Positions 2-7,208 of a stretch of DNA of 64,000 nt are shown here, one piece after another. The first letter of the stretch is position 1. Each line of letters starts with the position of its first letter. The position numbers and the translations under genes are program-made. The DNA is taken from positions 1,747,045 to 1,811,044 of the forward strand of contig JAJEAN010000007.1 of the NCBI GenBank assembly GCA_022822725.1. The letters run 5' to 3'. The stretch is from Candidatus Latescibacterota bacterium (GTDB lineage: Bacteria; JAAXHH01). The notes below the pieces were generated by a model, which was not told the DNA's origin, searched no databases, and saw only the letters and a program-made list of their open reading frames with translations.

Positions 2-757
2 CTGGCCGGCGACGTGGACGTCGTCATGCTCTGCGTAAAGTGCTGGCAGGTACCCGATGCCCTCGACGGACTCCGGCCCCTGCTCGGACCGGATACCTGC
101 ATCCTGCCCATGGAAAACGGGGTGGAGACCCCGGAGCAACTCGCCGCGGAATTCGGCTGGCGTCACGTGCTCGGCGGTGTGTGCGGGATCGTCTCGTTCA
201 TCGCCGAACCGGGTCTCATCCGGCACGTCGCCTACGAACCCTTCGTAAATTTCGGCGAATGGGACAACCGCCCCAGTGAACGGGTCGACCGGCTGCGCCG
301 GGCCTTCGAAGACGCCAGAGGTCTCATCGTCGATACGCCGGCGGATATCCAGGCCGCCATGTGGCGCAAGTACATCCTCATCGCCTCGTGGAGCGGGATC
401 GGGGGCGTGACCCGCGCGCCGATCGGCGTCGTCCGCAGTCAGCCCGGGACGCGGCGGCTCCTCGAGACGGCCATGGAGGAAATCCACCAGGTGGCCACCA
501 CCCTGGGGGTCAACCTCCCGGAAGACATCGTGGCCCAGACCCTGGCTACCCTGGACAGTGTGGAATACGGCGGTACCGCCTCCATGCAGCGGGATATCAT
601 GGAAGAGCGGTTCTCCGAACTGGAAGCCCAGACCGGCGCGCTGGTCCGCATGGGCAGGGAAGCGGGCGTGCCCACACCGGTCAACGAATTCATCTACCAT
701 GCGCTTCGGCCGATGGAACTGCGCACCCGCGAGCAGGTGTCCTTCGAGGCGCCCTGA
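2..757 (+). CDS. Ketopantoate reductase family protein, 3' part
   Basis: The reading frame is open at the left edge, so the N-terminal Rossmann GxGxxG segment lies outside the window. About 250 residues remain. They start with the end of the NADPH-binding domain (VDVVMLCVKCWQ) and continue through the helical PanE/ApbA C-terminal domain. ApbA-type enzymes reduce 2-dehydropantoate to pantoate with NADPH in CoA synthesis. The motif MWRKYILIAS holds the position of the conserved catalytic Lys, but the Asn that normally follows four residues later is Ile here. The protein may therefore be a PanE-fold paralogue with another oxo-acid substrate rather than the pantoate enzyme. The gene ends with TGA at 755-757 and is followed by a tandem-repeat gap, so it does not look co-transcribed with the next operon. 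Confidence 0.75.
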   Translation: MAGDVDVVMLCVKCWQVPDALDGLRPLLGPDTCILPMENGVETPEQLAAEFGWRHVLGGVCGIVSFIAEPGLIRHVAYEPFVNFGEWDNRPSERVDRLRRAFEDARGLIVDTPADIQAAMWRKYILIASWSGIGGVTRAPIGVVRSQPGTRRLLETAMEEIHQVATTLGVNLPEDIVAQTLATLDSVEYGGTASMQRDIMEERFSELEAQTGALVRMGREAGVPTPVNEFIYHALRPMELRTREQVSFEAP

Positions 758-796: not shown

Positions 797-983
797 ACCG
801 GCACCAGGCGGCGACTACCTGTGACGCCGGGCAAACAGAGGAAGCACCAGGCGGCGACTACCTGTGACGCCGGGCATACAGAGGAAGCACCAGGCGGCGA
901 CCACCTGTGACGCCGGGCATACAGAGGAAGCACCAGGCGGCTTCCCAAATGTGACGCCGGGTATACAGAGGAAGCACCAGGCG
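797..983. repeat. 43-bp tandem repeat, about four copies
   Basis: A unit beginning GTGACGCCGGGC starts at 821, 864, 907 and 951, giving periods of 43, 43 and 44 bp. Part of the unit (CACCAGGCGGCGACTACCT) also precedes the first copy. Copies differ by only a few bases, except for a divergent stretch at 939-950. The array fills most of the gap between the PanE-like gene and the methyl-transfer operon. There are no spacers, so this is not a CRISPR array, and no coding potential was recognised. Confidence 0.9.
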
Positions 984-1011: not shown

Positions 1012-2010
1012 ATGAAACCCTTTATTAAACGCATCGCCGACGACCGCCCCCTCCTCTACGACGGCGCCTTCGGTACCGAACTCTTCGTCCGCGGCATCGA
1101 ACTGGCCAACAGCGCCCTGGCCAACGAACTATACCCCGACGTTGTCAAGGATATCCATTTCGACTATATTGAAGCAGGCGCCGAGGTGATCGGAACCAAT
1201 ACATTCGTGGCGTCGTATCCCCATCTCGAGATGGCCGGGAAGGACGCTTCCGAGTCCGATGGACTCATCCGGCTTGCCGTGGAACACGCCCGGGACGCCA
1301 TCGAGCGCAGTGGCAGGGACGTGTACCTCGCCGGTTCCATCGGTCCCTTGCCGGGGGCCATCGAGGCCGACAGCGGCGATACGGAGTTCGGCATCGCGAA
1401 CAGCATCGCCCGGGACGCCCACACGCGCGCGGGCACGGCAATGGCGGAAGCCGGCGTGGACTTCTTCTGTGTCGAGACCATGTTCTCCGCCAACGAAGCG
1501 GCCCTGGCCGTGAACGAACTGGCGCAGTTCGGTCTGCCGATCGCGGTGAACCAGACGTACAAGTACACGAAGGACCGGGCCACGGGCGAGGTCATCTACA
1601 AGACGGACTGGGGCCATACGGCGATGGACCTGATTGAGGTCCTGGCGGGCGGCGCGCAGTCCGAAGGACGCGACCTGCTCGGGCACGTGCAGATCCTCGG
1701 CCTGAATTGCGGTGCGGAATCCCGGCGGGATGAGCACACGGGGATGCCCTACGCCATTAACGGCATCGACCAGTTGAAACGGGCCATGGCAGCCAGGCCG
1801 GAGCCGCCTAAGCGCATGATGGCCTACCCGAACGCGGGGAGGGCCCGCCTCGATGAGCAGCACCGGACCTATTACGACAATACGCCGGAGGAAATGGCCG
1901 CCCTGGTGCCGAACCTCCTGGAGGCCGGCGCCTACTTCATCGGCGGATGCTGTGGCACGGGCGTAGCCCACATCCGTGCCTTCCGCGAGGCGATGGACAG
2001 GGCGTCATGA
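1012..2010 (+). CDS. Homocysteine S-methyltransferase family protein
   Basis: This 332-residue protein has the Pfam Hcy-methyltransferase (BHMT/MetH N-module) fold. It opens with LYDGAFGTELFVRG. The three zinc-ligand cysteines of the family are present: Cys233 in GLNCG and the Cys313-Cys314 pair in GGCCGTG. Family members move a methyl group to the thiolate of homocysteine from a corrinoid (the MetH module), betaine or S-methylmethionine. No betaine-specific feature can be assigned by eye. It is the first gene of a six-gene run whose later members are a corrinoid protein and its activator, so methyl-corrinoid is a plausible donor; that is inference. The stop overlaps the next start (ATGA). 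No convincing Shine-Dalgarno sequence precedes the ATG, but it is the only start that keeps the full fold. Confidence 0.88.
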   Translation: MKPFIKRIADDRPLLYDGAFGTELFVRGIELANSALANELYPDVVKDIHFDYIEAGAEVIGTNTFVASYPHLEMAGKDASESDGLIRLAVEHARDAIERSGRDVYLAGSIGPLPGAIEADSGDTEFGIANSIARDAHTRAGTAMAEAGVDFFCVETMFSANEAALAVNELAQFGLPIAVNQTYKYTKDRATGEVIYKTDWGHTAMDLIEVLAGGAQSEGRDLLGHVQILGLNCGAESRRDEHTGMPYAINGIDQLKRAMAARPEPPKRMMAYPNAGRARLDEQHRTYYDNTPEEMAALVPNLLEAGAYFIGGCCGTGVAHIRAFREAMDRAS

Positions 2011-2336
2011 GTACGGGTGCGAAAGGCACAGGACAGGCCGGCGTGACGACGTACCAGGTGCTCTGCTGGCGTGACATCCCCGCGCAGGTGCGGGTCTTCG
2101 GCGGCCGCAGCGGGGGCCGCCGGCCCCTTTCGCGCCCTATGCCCGACTGGTTTCAGCAGGAGATCGACCGGGTGGCCATGCGGGAAGGACTGACCGGAAC
2201 CGACGCCTACCTGGACGCGTGGCACTGGTCCGAGAAACGGGTATGGACCGGCGAGGAATCTGAAGCCGGGGACGTGGCGGAAGCGCTGCTGAATCAGCTC
2301 GAAGGCGAATACAGACTGGGAAAGCCCCAACCGTAA
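2007..2336 (+). CDS. Small 'virulence factor' family protein (PF13769-like)
   Basis: This 109-residue cytoplasmic protein starts at the ATG that overlaps the previous stop by four bases, which implies translational coupling. The sequence runs TTYQVLCWRDIPAQVRVFGG, then a central segment PMPDWFQQEIDRVAMREGL and a C-terminal helix rich in Trp and Glu. I recognise it as the short family named 'virulence factor' in databases. From memory, that family recurs beside corrinoid methyltransferase, corrinoid protein and ASKHA-activator genes in environmental bacteria. Its biochemical role is not established. No metal motif or catalytic residue is obvious. The position here supports a role in methyl transfer or enzyme maturation rather than virulence. 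Confidence 0.7.
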   Translation: MSTGAKGTGQAGVTTYQVLCWRDIPAQVRVFGGRSGGRRPLSRPMPDWFQQEIDRVAMREGLTGTDAYLDAWHWSEKRVWTGEESEAGDVAEALLNQLEGEYRLGKPQP

Positions 2337-2341
2337 CGACA

Positions 2342-2440
2342 GGCATTGCCAGCCTAATTCGGGAAGGGCCGGTCATAATTGGCAAGCGTCCGGCCGAAGA
2401 TGGGCATTGCCAGCCGCAGACGGAAAGGGCCGGTCGAAGA
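2342..2440. repeat. 61-bp imperfect direct repeat
   Basis: Two copies of a segment that begins GGCATTGCCAGCC and contains GGGCCGGTC start at 2342 and 2403. They fill the short gap between the 'virulence factor' gene and the next gene of the operon. They carry no recognised promoter or terminator. Confidence 0.7.
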
Positions 2441-2458
2441 CGGGAATCGTTCAACCAA

Positions 2459-3097
2459 ATGGGTCAGACGACAGACATAGGAAGACGCATCGAACTGGTT
2501 CCGCTCGATCCCCACTTCGAAGACGTCTCCATCGGCCTGTACCGACAGCAGGATGGCGGGTGTCCGGTCTACCGGGTTCACACTTACAGCCACCGGCCCG
2601 GCGCGGATGACCGGATCGCATTCGTAGTAAAGGCCATGGAGGTCCTGGGAGGGATGGAGCGGAACCCCGATGACCGATTGAAGTTTCCCTGCGGGTGGGA
2701 CCACCACCTGGCGGTAAAGCGCGTTTTCATCGAAGCCTGCAAACTGGATTCTTCCGACCCGGTCGAGCCCCGTCCCCTGGAGATCCTAGACAAGAAATCG
2801 GGACTGCGGATCAAGGTGCTGAGCGAAGGCGACGGCGTCTACCGGGTCACGGCCCACGGGGAGGGCAAGGATCCTGAACGGCGTATCTCCTTCATCGCGG
2901 GCGGACTGATGAAACTGGCCGAGATCGACGCGGTCGACGGCACGCTGGACCGGGTAGTCTTCCCCTGCGGGCATGTCCACGACGCACTGATCGGACTGTT
3001 GCTGGTCCGTGCGCCGAACGTCCGGGCCGTGCTCCGCGAGCAGGAAATGGTCGCAAGCCGGGGTGTCCTGGCCGCGCCAAGCCAGCAGGATGGATGA
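2459..3097 (+). CDS. Unknown protein with internal FPCG duplication
   Basis: This 212-residue protein is of unrecognised function. The two halves can be aligned by eye: PVYRVHTYSH (36-45) with GVYRVTAHGE (126-135), RIAFVVKAMEVL (52-63) with RISFIAGGLMKL (142-153), and LKFPCGWDHHLAV (74-86) with VVFPCGHVHDALI (166-178). Each half therefore carries an FPCG turn followed by His. Cys78, His82/His83, Cys170 and His172/His174 are candidate metal or cofactor ligands; that is inference. There is no signal peptide or membrane segment. The gene lies between the small 'virulence factor' gene and the URO-D methyltransferase on the same strand, so a part in the same corrinoid pathway is likely. An ATG directly after TTCAACCAA is used; no strong ribosome site is visible. 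Confidence 0.72.
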   Translation: MGQTTDIGRRIELVPLDPHFEDVSIGLYRQQDGGCPVYRVHTYSHRPGADDRIAFVVKAMEVLGGMERNPDDRLKFPCGWDHHLAVKRVFIEACKLDSSDPVEPRPLEILDKKSGLRIKVLSEGDGVYRVTAHGEGKDPERRISFIAGGLMKLAEIDAVDGTLDRVVFPCGHVHDALIGLLLVRAPNVRAVLREQEMVASRGVLAAPSQQDG

Positions 3098-3166
3098 GCT
3101 TTCCCTGACACTGTATCAGTTCAGGTGCAGGAATAGAACCATCGCGCCGTCATTAAGGAGGCAGGC

Positions 3167-4294
3167 ATGGAAGAGCACGTCATCAAACAGATGAAGGGCC
3201 GTGACCGGGTGCTGGCCGCCCTGCAGGGAGAACCTGTGGACCGCACGCCCGTTTGCAATCCGACCTCCGTCGCCACGGTGGAACTGATGGACCTCGTCGA
3301 CGCCCCCTTTCCGGACGCCAACCGGGACCCGGAGCTGATGGCCCGGCTCGCGGCCACGAGTTACACCGAACTGGGATTCGACACCATCATGCCGGTCTTC
3401 ACCATCATCCAGGAATCTTCCGCGCTGGGGTGCGATATCCAGTGGGAGCAGAAGGACAACTGGCCCACGGTAAGGATGAACAACCCCATCTGGAATGACG
3501 TGGACGACATCAAGGTCCCGTCGGATTTCCTGACGCACCGGGACACGAAGTGCGTCCTCGACGCCATCAGCAGGCTCAAGAAGGAATACGGCGACGAGGT
3601 CGCGATCATCGGGAAGACCATGGGACCGTGGTCCCTGGGTTACCACACTTTCGGCGTGGAGCCTTTCCTGCTCACGTCCCTCGACGACCCGGGCAAGACC
3701 CACCTCGCCCTCGACCGCATGAAGGAAATCACGGTGGAGTTCGGCCGTGCGCAGATCGAGGCCGGGGCGGACGCCCTGACCCTGCCGGACCACGCCACCG
3801 GCGACCTGGTGAGCGGCGAATACTACCGGCGTTTCCTGCGGGACCTTCACATCGAAATGGTGGAACGGATACCCATCCCGCTGATCATGCACATCTGCGG
3901 GCGGACCGTGGACCGCATGGGCTACATCGCCGAGACCGGCTTCGCTGCCTTTCACTTCGATTCGAAAAACACGCCCATGGAGTCCATGGAAGCCGTGGAC
4001 GGCCAGATCTCCCTCGTGGGCAACATCAACAATCCCGAGACGCTGTTCGCGCGGGGTCCCGACGAAGTGGGTCATGAAGTGTGCCAGAACCTGGAACACG
4101 GCATACACATGGTGGGACCGGAATGCGCAGTTCCCCTCCAGGCCTCCATCGAGAACCTGAAGGCGATCCCCGACGCGGTGAAGGAATGGCACCGCAACCA
4201 CGGGTGCGGCGGAACGGCGTGCGGCGGAACGGCGAATGGCGGGACTTTGAACGGCGAATCGAAGGAAACGGATCGCGGGAAGACCGGGCAGTAA
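3167..4294 (+). CDS. URO-D family corrinoid methyltransferase (MtaA/CmuA type)
   Basis: This 375-residue protein has the uroporphyrinogen decarboxylase fold of the cobalamin methyltransferases (MtaA, MtbA, CmuA and O-demethylase relatives), not the HemE decarboxylase pattern. The zinc motif HxC-x75-C is visible as MHICG near residues 241-245 and Cys in GPECAVPL near 320. In characterised relatives these residues bind the thiol acceptor or activate the methyl donor. It precedes its probable partner corrinoid protein by three bases. AAGGAGG sits seven bases before the ATG. The last 30 residues are a low-complexity Gly/Thr tail built from a 15-bp repeat (4205-4249) and look like a recent extension. 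Substrate is unknown; no MttB-type methyltransferase is encoded here. Confidence 0.85.
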   Translation: MEEHVIKQMKGRDRVLAALQGEPVDRTPVCNPTSVATVELMDLVDAPFPDANRDPELMARLAATSYTELGFDTIMPVFTIIQESSALGCDIQWEQKDNWPTVRMNNPIWNDVDDIKVPSDFLTHRDTKCVLDAISRLKKEYGDEVAIIGKTMGPWSLGYHTFGVEPFLLTSLDDPGKTHLALDRMKEITVEFGRAQIEAGADALTLPDHATGDLVSGEYYRRFLRDLHIEMVERIPIPLIMHICGRTVDRMGYIAETGFAAFHFDSKNTPMESMEAVDGQISLVGNINNPETLFARGPDEVGHEVCQNLEHGIHMVGPECAVPLQASIENLKAIPDAVKEWHRNHGCGGTACGGTANGGTLNGESKETDRGKTGQ

Positions 4295-4297
4295 CGC

Positions 4298-5062
4298 ATG
4301 GCAGAACTCAACGACATTGCCAACGACTTCCTGAAAGATGAAATCGAGGATTTCATTGAGCGGCCCGAAGAACGGACGCGGATCATCAATGCGTTCGCCC
4401 GGGCGACGCCCGACATGCAGGAGATCTCCGCGGCCCTCATCGATGGGGACAACGGGACGGTCGATACGCTGACCCGCAAGGCGCTGGACGAGGGCATCGA
4501 AGCGCTGGAGGTGATGGACGACGGCCTGATCGCCGGCATGAGCGTCGTGGGCATCAAGTTCCGCGAGAACTTCATCTTCGTCCCGGAAGTACTCGCCTGC
4601 GCAAGGGCCATGAAGGCCGGGATGGCCCACATCGAACCCATTCTCTCCGCTTCCGGCATCGAACCCATCGGCACGGTCATCATGGGTACGGTCAAGGGCG
4701 ACCTCCACGACATCGGCAAGAACCTCTGCATCATGATGCTGCGCGGCGCCGGGTTCGTCGTTCACGACCTGGGCGTGGATACGTCAGAGGACGAGTTCAT
4801 GGACGCGGTGGAGGAACACGAAGCGCCTCTTCTGGGCATGTCGGCCCTGCTTACCACGACCATGCCCAACATGGGCAAGACCATCGACGCCTTCATCGAC
4901 AACGACATGCGCGAGGACGTCAAGATCATGGTGGGCGGCGCGTCGGTCACCCAGGAGTTCGCCGACGACATGGGCGCCGACGGCACCGCCGAGGACGCGG
5001 TGGGGTGCGTGGAACTGGCCCAGCGTCTCCTCGAAGAACTCAAGCAGGAGCAGGACGACTGA
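4298..5062 (+). CDS. Methyltransferase cognate corrinoid protein
   Basis: This 254-residue B12-binding protein has the MetH-like layout. An N-terminal four-helix cap (about 30-115) holds LIDGDNGTVDTLTRKALDEG. It is followed by a Rossmann cobalamin domain with the base-off DxHxxG motif at Asp135-His137-Gly140, the SxL segment MSALLTTTMPNM near 185, and VGGAS near 213. His137 would supply the lower axial ligand to cobalt. The protein carries a methyl group as methyl-Co(III) between two methyltransferases. Its length matches the MtaC/MtbC/MttC class plus a short N-terminal extension. It lies three bases after the URO-D gene, and an activator for oxidised Co(II) follows, which together define a catalytic unit. 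Confidence 0.93.
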   Translation: MAELNDIANDFLKDEIEDFIERPEERTRIINAFARATPDMQEISAALIDGDNGTVDTLTRKALDEGIEALEVMDDGLIAGMSVVGIKFRENFIFVPEVLACARAMKAGMAHIEPILSASGIEPIGTVIMGTVKGDLHDIGKNLCIMMLRGAGFVVHDLGVDTSEDEFMDAVEEHEAPLLGMSALLTTTMPNMGKTIDAFIDNDMREDVKIMVGGASVTQEFADDMGADGTAEDAVGCVELAQRLLEELKQEQDD

Positions 5063-5145
5063 CGGCGTGTGCTGGAGCGGGCGGCTGACAGCGTGTGCTG
5101 GAGCAGGCGGCTGACGGCGTGTGCTGGAGCAGACGGCTGACGGCG
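5061..5145. repeat. 26-bp tandem repeat, three copies
   Basis: A unit reading GACGGCGTGTGCTGGAGC plus eight more bases starts at 5061, 5087 and 5113, with a partial fourth at 5139. It begins at the stop codon of the corrinoid gene and ends about 40 bases before the activator gene, so it lengthens an intra-operon gap. Confidence 0.88.
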
Positions 5146-5186
5146 CGGACCGACGAAAATGCAGGACACCTTCCCGACAGATTCCC

Positions 5187-7208
5187 ATGAAGAAAATCGA
5201 CAAGGCGGCGTACCAGGAGCGTCTGGACCGCATCACGGCCATCTTCAAGGACATGATGGTCCACGCGACCGAACAGGCTAAGTACCGCTGCCCCTACAAG
5301 AACCGCTTAGACGAATGTACTGCCCGGTTCGGGTGCCGCAATCAGCGCAAGCCGCGGGAAACCGGCGGGTTGCTCATGTGCGGCGGGGACGACAAGCTCG
5401 ACTACCGCATGGCCTGGGAGACGGAGGAGTCGCCCCGCGAACGGCCGGCCCAAGGGTCGACGGATGCACGGACGGACCGTGGATCGACGGATGCACGGTC
5501 GGGCGGCGGGTCGAAAAACACCCGGTCAGACGGCGGATCAAAGGATTCCCGTCTGGACGGCGGGTCGAAAAAGACCCGGCCGACCGGCGGAACGATAACC
5601 GACGGCACCACGACCCGGCCCCTGACTGTCGGCCGGACCCTCTTCGATTACGCCGACGATCTCGCCGTCCAGGTGCCCACCTCCTGCTTCCGCAACGGCA
5701 TCTGCCACGAGTGCATCGTTGAAGTACAGGACGGCATGGAAGGACTCGTCCCGCGGACGGAAGCGGAATCCTTCCTGCGGGAGAACTATCGTCTCGCCTG
5801 CCAGGCGCGGGTCGTCGACGCGGACGTGGATATCGCTTTCTCCCCCCTGCGGCGGACGCCCAAGATCCTGACCGTTACCGAAGAAAAGGAATCGCGGCTC
5901 GATCCCGTGGTCACCCGGCAGGGCGACGTCGTGTGCTATGACGGCGAGGAGATCGACCAGTACCGGGGGCATCTTTACGGGCTCGCCATCGATCTCGGCA
6001 CGACCACGGTGGTCATGGACTTCGTAGATCTCGAGACCGGCCGGAGCGTCCACCTGTGTTCCTTCGAGAACCCCCAGCGCTTCGGCGGCAGCGACGTGAT
6101 GCACCGGATCTCCTACGACGGCGCCTTCGAGGACGAACTCTGGAACGCCATCATCAACGCCGTCAACCACGAGATCATGGACTGGTGCGAGCGCACGGGA
6201 ACGGCACGGCAGGAAATCTACGAGATCGTCGTGGCAGGCAACGCCACCATGCGTGATCTCTTCTTCCGGCTCGATGTGCAGAGCATCGGCCAGAAACCCT
6301 ATAAGTCCACGATCGAAAACGAATACCTCGCGGGTGAGCGGGCGACCACGGCGCTGACCATCGGCACCCGCCGCCTGGGGCTGCGGGCCAATCCGAAGGC
6401 CCGGGTCTATGGAATGCCCCTCATCGCCAGCCACGTGGGCGGCGACGTGACGGCCGACCTGGCTACCGTTGAGATGGCCGCGCAACCGGGCGTGTCCATG
6501 CTGGTGGACGTGGGCACCAACACCGAGGTGGTCGTGGCGGGCAACGGGCGCATGATCACGGCTTCGTGCCCCGCCGGACCCGCCTTCGAAGGCGGCGGCA
6601 TCAAGTACGGCATGCCGGGTTACGAAGGCGCCATCGAATCGCTGAAGTGGGCGGATGGGCGGTTCGCCTGGAGCACCATCGGCGATACCGCGCCCCAGGG
6701 CATCTGTGGTTCCGGCCTGATCGACCTCCTCGCCGAATTGCACCGCCACGGTATGATGACCCCCAAGGGCGTGTTTTCCGACCGGAAACAGTTCGAAGTG
6801 GCCGTCGTGCCCGAGTCCGGCATCACCCTTTCACGGCAGGATGCCAGCAACCTGGCCCAGGCCAAGGCCGCCAACTACTGCGGGCAGTACATCGTGCTGC
6901 GTACGTTCGGCGTCGCGCCCGGCGACGTGGACCGCCTCTTCCTGGCCGGGGGGTTCGCCAACTACGTAGACGTGCACAACGCCATCGACATCGGGTTCCT
7001 TGCCCCCGTGCCCGAGGACCGCATCGTCAAGGTGGGCAACGCCGCCGTCCAGGGCGCCCGGGAGATCCTCCTGTCCCGCTCTCGACGCACGGAGCTGGAG
7101 GCGCTGGTCAAGGACATCGAGCACATCGAGCTCGAGACCACCACCGACTTCTTCGAGGTCTTCGTCGAGGCCTGCCAGTTCAAGCCCATGCCCGGGGTGT
7201 TGGTGTAG
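5187..7208 (+). CDS. Reductive activator of corrinoid protein (RACE, 2Fe-2S plus ASKHA)
   Basis: The ATG at 5187 (MKKIDKAAYQ) gives 673 residues; upstream codons in this frame lie in the tandem repeat and were rejected. An N-terminal Cys-bearing segment (CPYKNRLDECTARFGCRN) is followed by a plant-type 2Fe-2S domain with Cys167, Cys173, Cys176 and Cys205. Next is a linker, then a DUF4445/ASKHA ATPase domain from about residue 265 (GLAIDLGTTTVVMDF), with MLVDVGTNTE and GICGSGLIDL. RACE proteins use ATP and low-potential electrons to reduce inactive Co(II) to Co(I) in corrinoid methyltransferase systems. Residues 90-134 are five 9-residue Gly-Ser-Thr/Lys units encoded by a 27-bp repeat, an unusual insert between the two N-terminal Cys regions. 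Confidence 0.92.
   Translation: MKKIDKAAYQERLDRITAIFKDMMVHATEQAKYRCPYKNRLDECTARFGCRNQRKPRETGGLLMCGGDDKLDYRMAWETEESPRERPAQGSTDARTDRGSTDARSGGGSKNTRSDGGSKDSRLDGGSKKTRPTGGTITDGTTTRPLTVGRTLFDYADDLAVQVPTSCFRNGICHECIVEVQDGMEGLVPRTEAESFLRENYRLACQARVVDADVDIAFSPLRRTPKILTVTEEKESRLDPVVTRQGDVVCYDGEEIDQYRGHLYGLAIDLGTTTVVMDFVDLETGRSVHLCSFENPQRFGGSDVMHRISYDGAFEDELWNAIINAVNHEIMDWCERTGTARQEIYEIVVAGNATMRDLFFRLDVQSIGQKPYKSTIENEYLAGERATTALTIGTRRLGLRANPKARVYGMPLIASHVGGDVTADLATVEMAAQPGVSMLVDVGTNTEVVVAGNGRMITASCPAGPAFEGGGIKYGMPGYEGAIESLKWADGRFAWSTIGDTAPQGICGSGLIDLLAELHRHGMMTPKGVFSDRKQFEVAVVPESGITLSRQDASNLAQAKAANYCGQYIVLRTFGVAPGDVDRLFLAGGFANYVDVHNAIDIGFLAPVPEDRIVKVGNAAVQGAREILLSRSRRTELEALVKDIEHIELETTTDFFEVFVEACQFKPMPGVLV
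5454..5588 (+). repeat. In-frame 27-bp repeat, five units
   Basis: Five consecutive 27-bp units encode GSTDARTDR, GSTDARSGG, GSKNTRSDG, GSKDSRLDG and GSKKTRPTG within the corrinoid activator. The reading frame is kept in all units, so the repeat expands a linker without breaking the enzyme. Confidence 0.9.

What the first reader, a model, noticed from the sequence alone, without database searches (positions are those of the whole stretch)
1012..7208. Six-gene corrinoid operon with the parts of a dissociated methionine synthase
The operon has, as separate proteins, a zinc-type homocysteine methyltransferase (Cys233, Cys313, Cys314), a base-off corrinoid protein (DxHxxG), a URO-D methyltransferase (HxC-x75-C) and a reductive activator in place of the AdoMet activation domain of MetH. 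No MttB-type methyltransferase or MtrH-like tetrahydrofolate enzyme is encoded. One reading is that an unknown methyl donor is demethylated by the URO-D protein and the methyl group ends on homocysteine, feeding methionine directly from an environmental methyl compound. Gene content is seen; the pathway is inference.
Basis: partly seen in the sequence, partly recalled or inferred. Interest (0 to 1): 0.72.

Follow-up and report, generated by a model that had tools for sequence, protein, structure and literature searches.

The report
Split B12 methyl-transfer operon making methionine
Six neighbouring bacterial genes look like a B12 methionine-making enzyme broken into separate proteins and fitted with its own methyl-taking enzyme and an undescribed partner protein, a set kept in several phyla of mostly uncultured bacteria, whose methyl source is not yet known.

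Summary
The host also has a full-length MetH, so the operon does not replace methionine synthase here. The genome has no MttB/MtgB protein and no free methyl-folate:corrinoid enzyme. The set is real and old: a homocysteine methyltransferase ortholog occurs in 26 of 29 genomes carrying gene 3, and genes 3 and 4 are neighbours in 49 of 49 loci found. In three relatives the cassette or its contig also carries a folate enzyme (MtgD), and those three show no MetH, while 23 of 23 others with a clear result have MetH and no MtgD. That ties homocysteine enzyme, corrinoid protein and activator together as a split methionine synthase of the Phaeobacter/Ruegeria kind. New are the MtaA-type S/Se-methyltransferase on the donor side, its partner gene 3 (a duplicated-domain family without a Pfam match) and the folate-free version in the window's lineage. 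Most likely reaction: a methylated sulfur or selenium compound plus homocysteine gives its thiol/selenol plus methionine. Direction and donor are inferred. New variant of a known kind.

The parts
1012..2010 (+). Homocysteine S-methyltransferase (HMT), 332 aa, Zn ligands Cys233/Cys313/Cys314; its own clade, 28-36% identical to Bmt/MtgE, MmuM, HMT-MTHFR and Gemmatirosa HMT, with extra segments between about residues 180 and 255
2007..2336 (+). PF13769 'Virulence_fact' protein, 109 aa; likely accessory to corrinoid reactivation (a relative is fused to the activator in Terrarubrum); role inferred
2459..3097 (+). ORF3, 212 aa, undescribed family: tandem duplication, invariant C78/H82 and C170/H174, conserved C-terminal tail; gene next to the URO-D gene in 49 of 49 loci
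3167..4294 (+). MtaA/CmuA-family (URO-D fold) methyltransferase, 375 aa, His242-Cys244-Cys320 zinc site; proposed methyl-donor side, S- or Se-type
4298..5062 (+). Corrinoid protein, 254 aa, B12-binding cap plus domain, DxHxxG (135-140)
5187..7208 (+). RACo-type corrinoid reductive activator, 673 aa: four-Cys N-terminal domain, repeat-rich linker, [2Fe-2S] ferredoxin domain, ASKHA domain (frame open from GTG 5121)
2..757 (+). Ketopantoate-reductase-like gene (5' end cut by the window; whole in L005 7807-8799); upstream of HMT in 8 of 8 distinct genomes of the genus compared and in G001 of another genus; possible part

Best explanation
A corrinoid methyl relay made of separate proteins. [quoted passage not shown] the HMT passes it to zinc-bound homocysteine, giving methionine; the RACo-type activator, helped by the PF13769 protein, reduces accidentally oxidised Co(II) with ATP. 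Relatives with MtgD can also link the carrier to methyl-folate and use the set as their methionine synthase; in the window's lineage MtgD is absent and MetH present, so the operon is a folate-independent salvage route beside MetH. Shown: gene content, conserved ligands, co-conservation, MtgD/MetH exclusion, absence of the other known donor enzyme families tested. Inferred: direction, substrate class, roles of ORF3 and the PF13769 protein.
For: Families and ligands. The URO-D zinc site is His-Cys-Cys in 11 of 11 clade members aligned, the state that PMC10418091 (abstract, introduction, methods, results and discussion read) assigns to S/Se-methyltransferases. HMT ortholog in 26 of 29 genomes with ORF3 and in 0 of 2 without. 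Corrinoid protein in 17 of 17 tested. Close stand-alone MtgD only in G022, G023, G024, which show no MetH, against 23 of 23 others with a clear result that have MetH and no MtgD (two of the 23, G007 and G012, have only part of MetH at a contig end). Related cluster in S. meliloti with Bmt, MttB, corrinoid protein, DUF1638, 'virulence factor', MTHFR, MtgD, ASKHA; split synthase shown by genetics in P. inhibens (PMC5764234, section 10 and passages) and R. pomeroyi (PMC12478193, abstract and passages). Own genome: no PF06253, no free pterin MT, so of the enzyme families tested only the URO-D protein is left to charge the carrier.
Against: The host's full MetH removes the need for this operon in methionine supply. 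Three genomes with ORF3 (G024, G025, G026) have no close HMT, so the methyl can have another fate there; one of them, G024, is one of the three MtgD genomes. G001 (97% complete) and G032 (2.1 Mb) show neither MetH nor MtgD; G001 has two short HMT-family frames that could be pieces of MetH. In 32 of 49 loci ORF3 and URO-D stand without the other cassette genes within the stretch held (some cut by contig ends). A 49% identical URO-D protein occurs without ORF3 in G015. URO-D is only 32% identical to MtaA, whose known role is the acceptor side. No riboswitch in the stretches searched. No substrate-specific neighbour was found.
Confidence: 0.5

Rival explanations
1. Methyl-selenium (or methyl-sulfur) recycling, as proposed for type I mlp gene clusters: the aim is to free selenide or thiol from methylated forms; homocysteine is only the convenient methyl sink.
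For: His-Cys-Cys site. SelD over cut-off in 22 of 23 genomes examined (23 of the 31 distinct genomes at hand), 14 with an in-frame TGA, against 2 of 14 control genomes over cut-off. PMC10418091 reports Sec genes in 87% of type I MGC species and selenide methylation by one Mlp2.
Against: G013, without ORF3 and without this URO-D protein, also has SelD, so the trait may just follow the clade. The URO-D protein is 19-25% identical to three MtaA-like proteins of an mlp-type cluster in Acetoanaerobium (my assignment from gene content) and 32% to MtaA. No Sec tRNA in six stretches around SelD, and no other Sec gene recognised by eye in the three whose ORFs were listed.
Confidence: 0.2
2. Reverse flow: the URO-D protein is an acceptor-side enzyme like MtaA that methylates a small thiol from the corrinoid protein, and the carrier is charged from methyl-folate or another source.
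For: Closest solved relative is MtaA (183 bits), an acceptor-side enzyme. Relatives with MtgD could charge the carrier from methyl-folate.
Against: In the window's genome no free pterin methyltransferase or MttB protein was found, so the carrier would have no known donor except the HMT running backwards from methionine.
Confidence: 0.15
3. The HMT is a betaine- or S-methylmethionine-dependent enzyme, unrelated to the corrinoid parts, that merely shares the operon.
For: Its Pfam family includes MmuM and BHMT; 29% identity to MmuM. In G016 HMT lies apart from the corrinoid genes, beside a PF13769 gene.
Against: Co-conserved with ORF3 genomes in 26 of 29 and placed right after the activator or after MtgD in other lineages; far below the MmuM (117 against 215 bits) and betaine (123 against 338) equivalog cut-offs. 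BHMT betaine-site residues were not compared.
Confidence: 0.07
4. Glycine betaine demethylation of the MtgBCDE kind.
For: Carrier, activator, PF13769-like protein and HMT are shared with the S. meliloti cluster.
Against: No PF06253 (MtgB) protein found in the whole genome.
Confidence: 0.03

Closest known systems
Three-part (split) methionine synthase with RamA-like activator of Phaeobacter inhibens (PMC5764234)
   Same: Separate homocysteine, corrinoid and activator proteins of the same families; same logic
   Different: P. inhibens has a free pterin-binding protein and DUF1638; no URO-D donor is described for it in the passages read; the window genome has no free pterin protein and keeps MetH; ORF3 is not DUF1638
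MtgBCDE glycine betaine demethylase / methionine synthase of Ruegeria pomeroyi and S. meliloti (PMC12478193)
   Same: Donor enzyme, corrinoid hub, HMT and activator; a PF13769-like gene in the S. meliloti cluster too
   Different: Donor enzyme is MtaA-like plus ORF3 instead of MttB-like MtgB; MtgD missing in the window's lineage
Type I mlp gene clusters (PMC10418091)
   Same: MtaA-like protein with His-Cys-Cys zinc site, corrinoid protein, Ram activator, no folate methyltransferase
   Different: One MtaA-like protein instead of two or more; has HMT, PF13769 and ORF3; low identity (19-25%) to the three MtaA-like proteins of one mlp-type cluster
MtaA, methylcobalamin:coenzyme M methyltransferase (PDB 4ay7)
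   Same: Fold family, HxC...C ligands, 32% identity
   Different: Acceptor-side enzyme in methanogens; below the MtaA equivalog cut-off (236 against 400 bits)
CdmB / CmuA halomethane methyltransferases (PMC13222342, passages read)
   Same: URO-D superfamily donor-side enzymes working with a corrinoid carrier
   Different: CdmB works without zinc; the window protein keeps all three zinc ligands

Membership tests
Split corrinoid methionine synthase (P. inhibens type) | Separate homocysteine-binding protein with Zn Cys triad | tested here: met
   Cys233/313/314, aligned in 16 of 16 HMT-family sequences
Split corrinoid methionine synthase (P. inhibens type) | Separate B12-binding protein with cap and DxHxxG | tested here: met
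Split corrinoid methionine synthase (P. inhibens type) | Separate pterin-binding (methyl-folate) protein | tested here: not met
   Two PF00809 matches in the genome: MetH and a 304-aa frame read as FolP; met in relatives G022, G023, G024
Split corrinoid methionine synthase (P. inhibens type) | Methionine auxotrophy on loss of the genes | not testable with these tools
   needs genetics in a cultured host
MtgBCDE glycine betaine system | MttB/MtgB-family (PF06253) donor methyltransferase | tested here: not met
   0 matches in own genome; control Methanosarcina acetivorans positive
Type I mlp gene cluster | Mlp2 and Mlp3 (at least two Mlps) with corrinoid and Ram proteins | tested here: not met
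   One MtaA-like protein; the only other URO-D match in the genome scores 411 bits and lacks the zinc motif, read as HemE
MtaA/CmuA methyltransferase family (TIGR01463) | Score over curated cut-off | tested here: met
   248.4 against 235.4 bits
MtaA methylcobamide:CoM methyltransferase (NF040654) | Score over equivalog cut-off | tested here: not met
   236.1 against 400 bits
RACo/RamA corrinoid activators | Fe-S domain plus ASKHA domain | tested here: met
   Fer2, RACo_middle, RACo_C_ter; RACo 3zyy 252 bits
DUF1638 (for ORF3) | Profile similarity | tested here: not met
   hhalign probability 0.1 against a profile of three DUF1638 proteins; no Pfam match of ORF3
Known folds (for ORF3) | Match to a solved structure | tested here: inconclusive
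   Foldseek best E 0.15; VIA best Z 4.8, rows mainly cover residues 2-101

The most novel reading that the evidence does not exclude
ORF3 and the MtaA-like protein are two subunits of a new S- or Se-demethylase, and the window's operon sends its methyl straight to homocysteine without folate: a corrinoid methionine salvage route beside MetH, in lineages other than the anaerobes for which folate-independent corrinoid methionine synthases are described, kept across several phyla of mostly uncultured bacteria.
Probability: 0.35. Interest if true: 0.7.

Novelty: new variant of a known kind. Interest (0 to 1): 0.52.

Why it matters
If right, bacteria deposited mainly as Poribacteria and Latescibacterota recover methyl groups from methylated sulfur or selenium compounds directly as methionine, by a B12 relay whose donor side (MtaA-like protein plus ORF3) is not described in the papers found. 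It adds a protein family without a Pfam match, ties the misnamed 'virulence factor' family PF13769 to corrinoid activation, and shows how a methionine synthase can be rebuilt from modules: with MtgD it stands where MetH is not found, without MtgD it stays as a side route.

Tried and rejected
Rejected: betaine demethylation (no PF06253 found in the genome); halomethane demethylase of CdmB type (CdmB has no zinc, PMC13222342 passages; here the zinc ligands are complete); ORF3 as a distant DUF1638 protein; ORF3 as a known domain (Pfam scan of 34 members, nothing better than E 0.037; no PDB sequence match; no clear fold match).

Led nowhere: riboswitch search (only three tRNAs, all in the window and at least 12 kb from the operon); plasmid search with the URO-D protein (best identity 27%; 13 of the 25 rows listed are annotated hemE); promoter/terminator scan (numbers as in shuffles); papers on Poribacteria, Latescibacterota or sponges with corrinoid or homocysteine terms (nothing on this cluster seen in the listings; none of those papers was opened). 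MetE: no full-length MetE in 11 genomes tested, but Meth_synt_2 proteins in open frames of 342-478 aa and of unknown role in 10 of 11, own genome included, so a route of the MesB/MesD kind is not excluded. The named collection was scanned once, with ORF3, so it was not asked how often this URO-D clade occurs without ORF3.
Full report
WHAT IS THERE. The window is G000:C9:1747045-1811044 of a 3.8 Mb genome in nine contigs. Six + strand genes lie at 1012-7208: HMT, a PF13769 protein whose ATG overlaps the HMT stop by four bases, ORF3, an MtaA/CmuA-type URO-D protein, a corrinoid protein starting three bases after the URO-D stop, and a RACo-type activator. The activator's real start is probably 5187, because relatives begin at MKKIDK or nearby and the earlier GTG lies in a 26-base tandem repeat at 5047-5145.

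HOST. Only 16 genomes of the phylum are held; 14 of 16 have ORF3. Matching named records of the same genus are deposited as Candidatus Latescibacterota or Gemmatimonadetes. That several bin names come from sponge studies is my recall, not a result. Whether the host respires oxygen was not tested; a Rieske/cytochrome b gene pair was seen by eye in a stretch of the same genome.

METHIONINE ENZYMES OF THE HOST. The genome has a full-length MetH with homocysteine, pterin and B12 domains and a C-terminal part that I read by eye as the activation domain (L004 2324-5989, 1221 aa as listed, open frame 1265), an HMT-MTHFR-like protein (L002; the MTHFR half recognised by eye), two URO-D proteins, of which the one outside the window is read as HemE by its score (411 bits) and lack of the zinc motif, no PF06253 protein and two PF00809 matches, MetH and a 304-aa frame read as FolP. 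One short Meth_synt_2 protein of unknown role is present.

CONSERVATION. In the 11 other genomes of the genus, the order HMT, PF13769, ORF3, URO-D, corrinoid, activator is kept (9 complete, 2 cut by contig ends). A scan of named genome contigs with ORF3 gave 49 loci. By record title: 32 Poribacteria (two of them, L061 and L093, from one genome), 9 Latescibacterota, 3 Gemmatimonadetes, 2 Bryobacterales, 1 Acidobacteria, 1 Verrucomicrobia, 1 unnamed. URO-D lies downstream of ORF3 on the same strand in 49 of 49; the matches are within 200 bases of each other in 45 and within 951 in all. By content (E 1e-5, flank up to 9 kb, several loci cut by contig ends): 32 have only ORF3 and URO-D, 17 have more, and 9 of the 17 hold all six genes, one of these with MtgD as well. 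In Poribacteria with the bare pair, the corrinoid protein, activator and HMT form a separate run in 5 of 7 loci examined; in the sixth (G016) HMT lies elsewhere beside a PF13769 gene, and in the seventh (G019) the contig ends inside the activator gene and HMT is on another contig. The corrinoid protein is present in 17 of 17 genomes tested, 72-96% identical. An HMT of at least 57% identity is in 26 of 29 distinct genomes with ORF3; G024, G025 and G026 lack one. G013 and G015, in which ORF3 was not found, lack it too (G030 and G031 are repeats of G005 and G006 and are not counted). G013 has no such URO-D protein; G015 has one of 49% identity without ORF3 (11 genomes given).

THE SWAP. In L053 and L079 the cassette continues after the activator with a free pterin-binding protein (MtgD) and HMT, in L079 also an MTHFR; on the contig of L052 (G024) MTHFR and MtgD follow without HMT. 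G022, G023 and G024 are the only genomes with a close stand-alone MtgD (64-100% identity) and show no MetH; 23 of 23 other cassette genomes with a clear result have MetH and no MtgD, two of them (G007, G012) with only part of MetH at a contig end. Left out of this count: G014 (MetH plus a short fragment at a contig end), G001 and G032 (neither found). G001 is 97% complete, so it is a loose end; it has two short HMT-family frames that could be pieces of MetH. G015 and G013 are outside the count because they lack ORF3; G015 has a 38% MtgD-like protein and a partial MetH, G013 has MetH. A one-sided exact test of 3 of 3 against 0 of 23 would give 1 in 2600, but the genomes are not independent. The simplest reading is that HMT, corrinoid protein and activator are a working methionine synthase when MtgD is added, as shown by genetics for P. 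inhibens (PMC5764234, section 10 and passages read) and R. pomeroyi (PMC12478193, abstract and passages read).

THE DONOR SIDE. The URO-D protein is 32% identical to MtaA and 19-25% to three MtaA-like proteins of an unannotated Acetoanaerobium cluster that I take for an mlp cluster by its gene content; His-Cys-Cys zinc ligands are kept in 11 of 11 members of the window's clade aligned, and also in MtaA and the three mlp-type proteins. PMC10418091 (abstract, introduction, methods, results and discussion read) takes this site as a mark of S- or Se-methyltransferases; PMC13222342 (passages read) finds no zinc in the chloromethane enzyme CdmB. With no MttB protein and no free folate enzyme found in the window's genome, the URO-D protein is the only candidate, among the families tested, to charge the corrinoid protein, so I place it on the donor side. 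That methyl transfer from corrinoid to homocysteine is downhill is general knowledge, not tested here. Folate-independent methionine synthases that probably take methyl from corrinoid proteins (MesA, MesB, MesC) are described for anaerobes in PMC7857596 (passages read).

ORF3. Thirty-four members (the window and 33 of the 49 loci) align with C-x3-H invariant in both halves, the first preceded by an invariant Phe, and a conserved tail; the halves match each other by profile (hhalign probability 96, E 1.7e-9; eight shuffles at most 0.3, reversed 1.0), so it is a tandem duplication. No Pfam family matches better than E 0.037 in any of 34 members; the model is good (pLDDT 88.8) but no solved fold matches clearly. 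Its fixed place beside URO-D suggests a subunit or substrate-handling partner; this is inference.

PF13769. The S. meliloti mtg cluster carries a gene annotated 'virulence factor', 45% identical to the window protein over 56 residues, between the corrinoid/DUF1638 genes and the MTHFR/MtgD/ASKHA genes; in Terrarubrum flagellatum one 760-residue protein joins such a domain to the activator; in Gemmatirosa it stands between corrinoid protein and activator. I infer a role in corrinoid reactivation. The words 'virulence factor' do not occur in the main texts of PMC5764234 and PMC12478193.

SELENIUM. SelD is over its cut-off in 22 of 23 genomes examined, 14 with an in-frame TGA, against 2 of 14 control genomes (weaker matches to related families occur in all). 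This agrees with a methyl-selenium donor, but G013, which lacks ORF3 and this URO-D protein, has SelD as well, so it may only reflect the clade.

VERDICT. It is a new variant of the split corrinoid methionine synthase, with an MtaA-type donor module and an undescribed partner. I found no paper on this cluster in the listings; only open-licence PMC papers were searched.

Noticed in passing
window 5187-5460 (activator residues 23-110); L052 10573-10845; L088 11409-11708: The activator's N-terminal domain (RCPYKN...CTAxFGC...C...LDYRxAWE, four conserved Cys) is a separate gene in L052 and L088, and in L090 only this part matches; the two stand-alone copies scanned (L052, L088) have no Pfam match.
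   Followed up: partly
L135 11756-14038 (Terrarubrum flagellatum plasmid): A 'virulence factor' (PF13769-like) domain fused to a RamA-like activator in one 760-residue protein.
   Followed up: yes
L150 (G015 contig 245): Related cluster without ORF3: corrinoid protein, activator, DUF1638-like protein, two other URO-D-like proteins without the full His-Cys-Cys set, HMT.
   Followed up: partly
L136 (Gemmatirosa kalamazoonensis plasmid 1): Corrinoid protein (52%), PF13769-like protein, activator (46%) and HMT (35%) in one stretch with a weak URO-D match beside it; the record has no annotation in the collection.
   Followed up: partly
window 801-983, 5047-5145, 5441-5595: Tandem repeats: a 43-base array just upstream of the operon, a 26-base array across the corrinoid protein/activator junction, and 27-base arrays in the activator linker.
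   Followed up: no
L162 8142-10556 (G000:C9 near 294-296 kb): SelD inside an 805-residue frame, apparently fused to an oxidoreductase domain (by eye); in 14 of 23 genomes examined SelD has an in-frame TGA.
   Followed up: partly
L088 9657-10736, L090: The Bryobacterales URO-D frame has one TGA inside the aligned stretch near its C-terminal end; probably just the stop codon with similarity running past it.
   Followed up: no
G024 genome: Fifteen weak HMT-family matches but no close ortholog of the window HMT.
   Followed up: no
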